64,000 nt of DNA from assembly GCF_000702945.1 (NCBI RefSeq), contig NZ_JNLE01000003.1, forward strand, positions 372,001 through 436,000. Reading direction: 5' to 3'. Shown here piece by piece: positions 1,707-51,572 of this stretch. Each line of letters begins with the position of its first letter. Positions within the stretch are counted from its first letter, which is position 1. Source of the DNA: Clostridium sp. KNHs205 (GTDB lineage: Bacteria > Bacillota > Clostridia > Lachnospirales > Lachnospiraceae). Position numbers and translations under genes: made by a program. The notes beneath the pieces are model-generated. The model did not search any database. It was not told where the DNA came from and saw nothing but the letters and a program-made list of their open reading frames with translations.

Positions 1707-1934
1707 TTCAGGCAAACTGCGCAAAACAGAAAAGAACGCATGCGCCTATGGAAAGGTATTAGAATTCCTTTTCTCTGGATATTTTGTGCTATAATATAAA
1801 ACTGATTGTTTGAGCGCAGCGAGTTATCAGTTTTATATTATGCCAAGCACAAAACATCCAGAGAATTAGGAATTCTTATACCTTGGAATTGAAGCATGAG
1901 TTTTTTTCTGTTTTGTGCAATTTGCCGTCCCCTT
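1707..1934. repeat. Long foldback repeat element, copy 1
   Basis: A 228-bp segment that is almost wholly self-complementary. Going inwards: an outer helix with CAAAACAG/CTGTTTTG, CATGC/GCATG, a 14-bp helix GGTATTAGAATTCC against GGAATTCTTATACC with one mismatch, CTCTGGAT/ATCCAGAG, TTTTGTGCT/AGCACAAAA, then ATATAAAACTGAT/ATCAGTTTTATAT closing the loop TGTTTGAGCGCAGCGAGTT. The edges are TTCAGG on the left and CCGTCCCCTT on the right. A second copy lies at 30317-30540. It sits 15 bp from the stop of the leftward gene yqeY. It codes for nothing. A non-autonomous mobile or REP/MITE-like element, or a structured 3' RNA, are both possible. Confidence 0.9.
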
Positions 1935-30316: not shown

Positions 30317-30540
30317 TTCAGGAAAATAACGTAAAACAGAAGAACGAATGCGCCTATGGAAAGGCATTAGAAGTCCTTTTCTCTGAAAATTTTGTGCTAT
30401 ATTATAAAACAGACTGTTTGAGCGAAGCGAGTTGTCTGTTTTATAATATGTCCAGCACAGAATATTCAGAGAATTAGGACTTCTTATGCCTTGTAATCGA
30501 AGCATGAGTTTTTCTGTTTTGCGTTATTTTCCGTCCCCTT
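30317..30540. repeat. Long foldback repeat element, copy 2
   Basis: A 224-bp relative of the element at 1707-1934, same orientation and same edges (TTCAGG left, CCGTCCCCTT right). Helices: outer GGAAAATAACG / CGTTATTTTCC with CAAAACAG-type ends, 14-bp GGCATTAGAAGTCC against GGACTTCTTATGCC, TTTTGTGCT / AGCACAGAA, and ATTATAAAACAGAC / GTCTGTTTTATAAT closing TGTTTGAGCGAAGCGAGTT. Compared with copy 1 the helices differ by paired substitutions while loops are kept. It ends 42 bp from the stop of leftward rsmI. Confidence 0.9.
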
Positions 30541-51499: not shown

Positions 51500-51572
51500 T
51501 GCGCCTCCAGGGGCTCGAACCCTGGACACCCTGATTAAGAGTCAGGTGCTCTACCAACTGAGCTAGAAGCGC
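51500..51572 (-). tRNA. tRNA-Lys (CTT)
   Basis: On the minus strand GCGCTTC ... GAGGCGC makes the acceptor stem with discriminator A. D arm AGCTCAGTTGGTAGAGC, anticodon stem CCTGA / TCAGG with loop containing CTT, and T arm CCAGGGTTCGAGCCCCTGG are all complete. CCA is not encoded. Confidence 0.97.

What the first reader, a model, noticed from the sequence alone, without database searches (positions are those of the whole stretch)
1707..1934. Foldback element with covarying helices and conserved loops
The two ~225-bp elements (1707-1934, 30317-30540) are near-complete hairpins. Apical loop (TGTTTGAGCGMAGCGAGTT) and internal-loop strands (GCGCCTATGGAAAGG left; GAAGCATGAGTTT right) are almost identical, while helices differ by paired changes: GGTAT/ATACC to GGCAT/ATGCC; AATTCC/GGAATT to AAGTCC/GGACTT; CTGAT/ATCAG to CAGAC/GTCTG; outer ACTGCGC/GTGCAAT to ATAACGT/GCGTTAT. 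Even a single mismatch in the 14-bp helix is kept. This is the pattern of a structure under selection (RNA, or a DNA hairpin bound by a protein), though repair within a cruciform could also homogenise arms.
Basis: seen in the sequence. Interest (0 to 1): 0.8.

Follow-up and report, generated by a model that had tools for sequence, protein, structure and literature searches.

The report
Giant DNA hairpins kept by selection
This genome carries at least 82 scattered copies of a near-perfect 220-base hairpin whose unpaired loops stay almost unchanged at fixed places in the genome while its two arms change together; the arms are likely kept matching by DNA copying from one arm to the other, and the hairpin probably works as folded DNA rather than as an RNA.

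Summary
Both elements are near-complete hairpins (fold z about -15.5; 0 of 200 shuffles as stable) from a family of at least 82 copies in this Anaerocolumna-like genome, with double compensatory changes at 51 of 75 pairs. The compensation does not look like stepwise RNA evolution: 58% of double changes are transversion-type, against 49% in unpaired columns; mismatch intermediates stay rare at every divergence; one copy shows an arm stretch rewritten as the complement of the other. This points to arm-to-arm copying by template switching. Selection is nevertheless real. In 56 syntenic ortholog pairs the hairpin differs at 3.7% of sites (loops 2.4-5.1%), the adjoining upstream DNA at 14-17%, with a sharp boundary. 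What is conserved is unpaired: an apical GC-GNA-GC cap (72 of 82 copies), internal loops, and two T·T mismatches ten bases apart. Relatives in other genera keep the apical loop and the giant hairpin with different helices. Young copies have terminal inverted repeats and 7-8 bp target duplications. Best reading: old foldback MITEs whose core persists as a selected DNA hairpin or cruciform site. No cognate protein was found; transcription could not be tested.

The parts
1709..1929 (+). Element 1: conserved hairpin, CAGG foot to CCGTC foot
   Evidence: model match 245.2 bits; fold
1711..1729 (+). Element 1, left outer arm (fast-changing, pairs with 1908-1926)
   Evidence: outer helix, 17 of 19 pairs with changes on both sides over 82 copies
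1908..1926 (+). Element 1, right outer arm
1730..1754 (+). Element 1, left internal-loop strand with CGCCTATGGAAA
   Evidence: 26 of 1106 loop sites changed in 56 ortholog pairs
1760..1760 (+). Element 1, first T·T mismatch (with T1877)
   Evidence: sequence; retained in most copies
1770..1770 (+). Element 1, second T·T mismatch (with T1867), ten bases from the first
   Evidence: sequence
1807..1825 (+). Element 1, apical loop TGTTTGAGCGCAGCGAGTT
1814..1820 (+). Element 1, GCGCAGC (GC-GNA-GC) cap
   Evidence: GCGNAGC in 72 of 82 copies
1842..1845 (+). Element 1, four-base bulge on the 3' side
   Evidence: lost in L021 and L054
1884..1902 (+). Element 1, right internal-loop strand with GAAGCATGAG
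   Evidence: 48 of 1091 loop sites changed in ortholog pairs
30319..30535 (+). Element 2: conserved hairpin
   Evidence: model match 246.2 bits; fold
30415..30433 (+). Element 2, apical loop TGTTTGAGCGAAGCGAGTT
30422..30428 (+). Element 2, GCGAAGC (GC-GNA-GC) cap

Best explanation
The two elements belong to a family of at least 82 dispersed foldback elements whose loops are conserved at fixed sites; their arms are likely kept complementary by template switching during DNA replication, and the folded + strand probably serves as a DNA hairpin or cruciform site that would be bound by a still unidentified host protein. Steps. (1) Shown: most copies are old insertions shared with a sister species; their flanks decay while the hairpin is conserved. 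(2) Shown for the young copies: 298-299 bp units with terminal inverted repeats and 7-8 bp direct repeats, as MITEs have. (3) Inferred: a mismatch arising in one arm is usually erased or copied across by quasipalindrome correction, which produces the covariation. (4) Inferred: the T·T mismatches, bulge and internal loops would be erased by the same process unless selected, so they are likely the recognition features. (5) Inferred: the apical GC-GNA-GC is predicted to nucleate extrusion of the + strand hairpin, as in phage N4 promoters. (6) Untested: which protein binds, and what the host gains.
For: Selection: 56 of 82 copies have syntenic orthologs in G014, one per site, in unbroken order and matching orientation; hairpin 448/12211 mismatches (3.7%) and 0.8% gap columns, the five nearest upstream 30-base bins 14-17% and 10-24%, first downstream bin 12% and 16%; loops 25/842, 26/1106, 48/1091, 40/790 changed. 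Arm copying: 62 double Watson-Crick changes in ortholog pairs where about 2 are expected if the sides were independent (my arithmetic), 37 of 62 transversion-type; on a spanning tree 241 of 419, against 196 of 397 in unpaired columns; singles stay near 4 per comparison while doubles rise from 4 to 13; L010 and L054 against their orthologs; inverted duplication of the loop in L043. DNA and + strand: GCGNAGC in 72 of 82 own copies (N = A 33, C 26, T 12, G 1) and in 81 of 90 distinct G014/G012 copies; published passages on d(GCGAAGC) and on N4 loops, where C-G closure and loop G and A are needed for extrusion; G-T over A-C mismatches on the + strand, 105:45 cells, 64:33 in orthologs; 46 of 62 G014 copies share one orientation relative to GC skew; no constant upstream gene orientation, 42 of 78. 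Two unrelated insertion sequences hit set points of the hairpin.
Against: No binding protein found. Transcription not testable here. The G-T excess is absent in other genera (50:44 over 26 hairpins) and could be mutational. The energy model gave GNA no bonus over other triloops in DNA or RNA, so the DNA argument rests on published work and recall. Helix sites are also slow (3.4%), which arm copying alone would not explain. The three youngest copies differ by 5-8 single-sided changes and no double one, so correction is not immediate. Ortholog pairs had to match the model on both sides; only nine sites without an ortholog were read in full. Four of 82 loops fit neither GNA nor GNNA.
Confidence: 0.5

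Rival explanations
1. A structured RNA: the + strand is transcribed and the hairpin acts as RNA; arms co-vary because RNA pairing is selected.
For: Strong covariation, conserved loops, G-T over A-C on the + strand.
Against: Transversion-type double changes 58-60% with few intermediates; upstream flank with no conserved promoter, 14% divergence right at the edge; upstream genes read toward the element in only 42 of 78 cases; no Rfam family at gathering score in four loci. A published survey shows that template switching can also maintain true RNA hairpins, so copying alone does not exclude RNA.
Confidence: 0.22
2. No host function: selfish MITE relics. Hairpins look conserved because damaged ones are deleted quickly and copies exchange sequence with each other.
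For: Deletion derivatives at four G014 sites. A 19-base apical cassette is present in one ortholog and absent from the other at three sites, which may mean exchange between copies.
Against: Loops diverge 2.4-5.1% between orthologs but more between copies (mean pairwise difference 0.07-0.17), so exchange does not dominate; of nine sites read, none held a full-length hairpin decayed by point changes.
Confidence: 0.18
3. REP-like elements served by a Y1 (HUH) transposase, single-stranded DNA being the mobile form.
For: Strand bias with replication. Three of the four Y1 loci found in G000 and G014 are fragments 172-334 bp left of a hairpin, all in one orientation; none on the right side in 172 copies.
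Against: The fragments differ in their left ends and in distance to the hairpin, so they look like separate insertions beside it. The window's genome has only a fragment below the cut-off and G012, with at least 38 copies, has none. 8-bp duplications are not expected of Y1 elements (recalled).
Confidence: 0.06

Closest known systems
Bacterial MITEs
   Same: Short, non-coding, dispersed, terminal inverted repeats and 7-8 bp direct repeats in the young copies
   Different: Core is a giant hairpin under selection at fixed sites, and the same cap and architecture occur with different end sequences in other genera
REP/BIME palindromes of enterobacteria (recalled)
   Same: Dozens of intergenic hairpins with conserved mismatches; insertion sequences of the IS110 and IS3 types hit them, as recalled for IS621 and IS1397
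   Different: About 220 bases instead of 20-40; no intact Y1/RAYT gene in the window's genome
Phage N4 early promoter hairpins
   Same: C(GNA)G loop that drives extrusion of one strand (passages)
   Different: Those are small promoters of a phage polymerase; here a 19-base apical loop tops a long hairpin
Quasipalindromes and template switching in RNA genes (PMC8794818, passages)
   Same: Arms corrected by copying, giving apparent compensatory mutation
   Different: Here in a dispersed repeat, with 57 to about 70 bp matched outer arms in G479, and with mismatches kept against the correction

Membership tests
Bacterial MITE | Terminal inverted repeats | tested here: met
   CTGGAGAGTCAAAAGTTC at both ends of L041 and L066; GTTACHGTTY ends in G479; decayed in most old copies
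Bacterial MITE | Target-site duplication | tested here: met
   8 bp at L041, 7 at L066; 8 bp exact in four of six G479 copies, by my reading; not seen in the old copies I looked at
Bacterial MITE | Mobilised by a related autonomous element | tested here: inconclusive
   That end sequence in the window's genome lies almost only at hairpin copies and no autonomous copy was seen (11 places with up to 3 mismatches; 2 of them not examined)
REP/RAYT | RAYT (Y1) gene in the genome | tested here: not met
   own genome: fragment, 22 bits against cut-off 23; G012 none
REP/RAYT | Short 20-40 base palindrome | tested here: not met
   215-221 bases in most copies
Known Rfam family | Match at gathering score | tested here: not met
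   four own loci including element 1: only a tRNA in L002; element 1 at relaxed threshold: best are microRNA hairpin families far below gathering; element 2 was not scanned by itself
Functional structured RNA | Covariation beyond shuffles | tested here: met
   0 of 500; not specific to RNA here
Functional structured RNA | Transcribed | not testable with these tools
   no expression data

The most novel reading that the evidence does not exclude
Anaerocolumna and scattered other Bacillota carry a chromosome-wide set of selected DNA-hairpin sites, nucleated by a GC-GNA-GC cap and read by a dedicated host protein through T·T mismatches one helical turn apart; the arms are rewritten freely by template switching, so the site is conserved as a shape rather than as a sequence.
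Probability: 0.3. Interest if true: 0.88.

Novelty: new variant of a known kind. Interest (0 to 1): 0.72.

Why it matters
Covariation is usually taken as proof of a functional RNA. Here it appears to be produced largely by DNA arm copying, while separate evidence (ortholog constraint on the loops) still shows selection. If the DNA reading holds, this is a genome-wide set of shape-conserved hairpin sites, found by a strict loop pattern in 12 of 398 sampled phylum genomes, with an unknown reader protein and a role that can be tested by deleting copies.

Tried and rejected
REP/RAYT was my first idea, from the AAGGGGACGG end; set aside because the window's genome has no intact Y1 gene. Loss of SbcCD as the reason why giant palindromes survive: SbcD matches in 23 of 24 genomes, 20 over the cut-off, the window's genome, G014, G012, G479 and G029 among them; G266 has none and G010 only a match below the cut-off. 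A partner gene beside elements: 15 loci, six of them viral contigs, showed no shared neighbour by eye (no family search was run on these). Viral contigs: six hits, near my chance estimate of about four, not pursued. Plasmid and phage collections: no match to element 1. Literature: the string GAGCGAAGCGAG is in three papers, unrelated by title; the listings on long palindromic repeats in Clostridia (15 of 109 shown) and on MITEs, Lachnospiraceae and palindromes (8 of 111 shown) named nothing on this family. I claim no wider absence from print. A changed outer pair at the L048 site, where G014 lacks the core, looked like proof of copying without function; it cannot be polarised and is not used.

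Full report
What is there. The two hairpins at window 1709-1929 and 30319-30535 fold with z near -15.5. A covariance model from 69 copies finds 82 distinct copies in this genome at E <= 1e-35, besides three copies broken by an insertion and a few shortened ones. G014, a one-contig sister genome, has 62 copies and G012 at least 38.

Covariation. 51 of 75 pairs have changes on both sides; the score is 0.307 against 0.098 in shuffles, 0 of 500, and sliding the partner destroys it.

Why the covariation is not by itself evidence for RNA. Between pairs of copies, single-side differences stay near 4 (3.9 to 4.3) from the second divergence class on, while double changes rise from 4.2 to 13.2. On a spanning tree of 81 copies, double changes are 178 transition-type and 241 transversion-type, against 201 and 196 in unpaired columns. 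In 56 ortholog pairs there are 62 double changes, 37 of them transversion-type, and 163 single-side ones. Stepwise RNA compensation passes through G-U and should be rich in transitions; a survey of RNA genes gives 61.0% transition-type for one-step compensations and itself proposes template switching (PMC8794818, passages). In L010 the left arm is the exact complement of the right at two former mismatch sites, while the ortholog keeps mismatches there; in L054 the four-base bulge is gone and the ortholog keeps it. L043 carries an inverted duplication of its apical loop. In G479 copies 57 to about 70 outer base pairs match almost without fault, although the arms differ between copies. Copying from arm to arm is the simplest cause. 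Against an instant process: the three youngest copies (L041, L061, L066) differ by five to eight single-sided changes and no double one. Mutations start on one arm.

Why there is selection. 56 of 82 copies have a syntenic ortholog in G014, in unbroken order and orientation, both window elements among them. Over these pairs the hairpin has 3.7% mismatches and 0.8% gap columns; the five nearest upstream 30-base bins have 14-17% and 10-24%; the first downstream bin has 12% and 16%, falling further out toward genes. Loops, which the opposite arm cannot template, are at 2.4-5.1%. Ascertainment was checked in part. Of 26 copies without ortholog, 19 regions were fetched and nine sites read: four are deletion derivatives that keep parts of the outer foot, five lack the hairpin, none is a point-decayed full-length hairpin. 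Two more G014 sites hold a hairpin split in its apical loop by an insertion sequence.

What is conserved. GCGNAGC lies in the apical loop of 72 of 82 copies (N = A 33, C 26, T 12, G 1), GCGNNAGC in 6, neither in 4; 81 of 90 distinct G014/G012 copies have GCGNAGC. d(GCGAAGC) is described as an extraordinarily stable DNA mini-hairpin with a sheared G-A pair (PMC6582339, passages); N4 promoters need C-G closure and the loop G and A for extrusion (PMC4496689, passages). That N is free in the DNA motif and that RNA lacks this stability is recalled; the energy model used here gave no GNA bonus in either. Two T·T mismatches ten bases apart are in the window family and, by my reading, in G479 and G029, where the helix bases around them differ. 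The strict loop pattern occurs in 12 of 398 phylum genomes and 11 of 200 family genomes, the own genome counted in both; the reversed control gave none and one match. It undercounts, since most copies in the window's genome end GTTATC. Of 36 such loops tested, 26 stand on arms with at least 50 Watson-Crick pairs and 10 scored lower, L162, L165 and L167 among them.

Strand and surroundings. G-T mismatches outnumber A-C on the + strand (105:45; 64:33 in orthologs), which favours a folded + strand, but not in other genera (50:44). In G014 46 of 62 copies have the + strand on the strand of negative GC skew (skew from sampled loci). Upstream genes show no orientation bias (42 of 78 read toward the element); downstream genes converge on it in 53 of 82 cases, median 57 bp from the stop (a simple ORF caller). 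A replication-linked orientation and no constant promoter fit a DNA element better than an RNA gene, without proving it.

Origin. Young copies are 298-299 bp units with inverted repeats and 7-8 bp direct repeats; the four copies with that end type (L037, L041, L061, L066) have no G014 ortholog. G479 copies have another end sequence and 8-bp repeats, exact in four of six. Most copies are decayed MITEs whose core remains.

Insertions. An IS110-type IS (PF01548, PF02371) sits at the same base of the left arm, at the first T·T mismatch, in three copies, and no other place matched the IS part of the query. A 1.7-kb rve-type IS (PF00665, PF01527), 99.5% identical, sits in the apical loop of two different G014 copies. 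Both behave like elements that recognise the hairpin.

Mechanism. A mobile foldback element spread before the species split. Its ends decayed; its core was kept. The arms are homogenised by template switching; the unpaired features survive because they are selected. The most likely selected form is a folded + strand DNA hairpin or cruciform recognised by a host protein. The protein and the benefit are unknown, so this last step is inference.

Noticed in passing
L278, L279, L280 (hairpins of L065, L033, L052): An IS110-family IS (about 1.6 kb) is inserted at the same base of the hairpin's left arm, GGTATTAGA|..|GAAGTCC, in three copies.
   Followed up: yes
L274:9165-10885 and L269:15870-17600: In G014 the same rve-type (IS3-like) IS, 99.5% identical over 1729 bp, sits in the apical loop of two different hairpins.
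   Followed up: yes
L031:1501-1623, L226 and L245 left flanks: Three decayed IS200-type tnpA fragments lie 172-334 bp left of a hairpin, all reading away from it; only one other Y1 locus was found in the two genomes.
   Followed up: partly
L203/L228, L204/L242, L040/L247: A 19-base apical cassette (TACACATAGTGTACTCATG region) is present in one ortholog and absent from the other at three sites, as if copied between paralogous hairpins.
   Followed up: no
G014, 62 copies: 46 of 62 hairpins share one orientation relative to GC skew, hence to replication.
   Followed up: partly
window 1-64000: GC skew is negative in seven of eight 8-kb bins and both hairpins are on the + strand, matching the bias in G014; the only tRNA found is tRNA-Lys at 51500-51572.
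   Followed up: no
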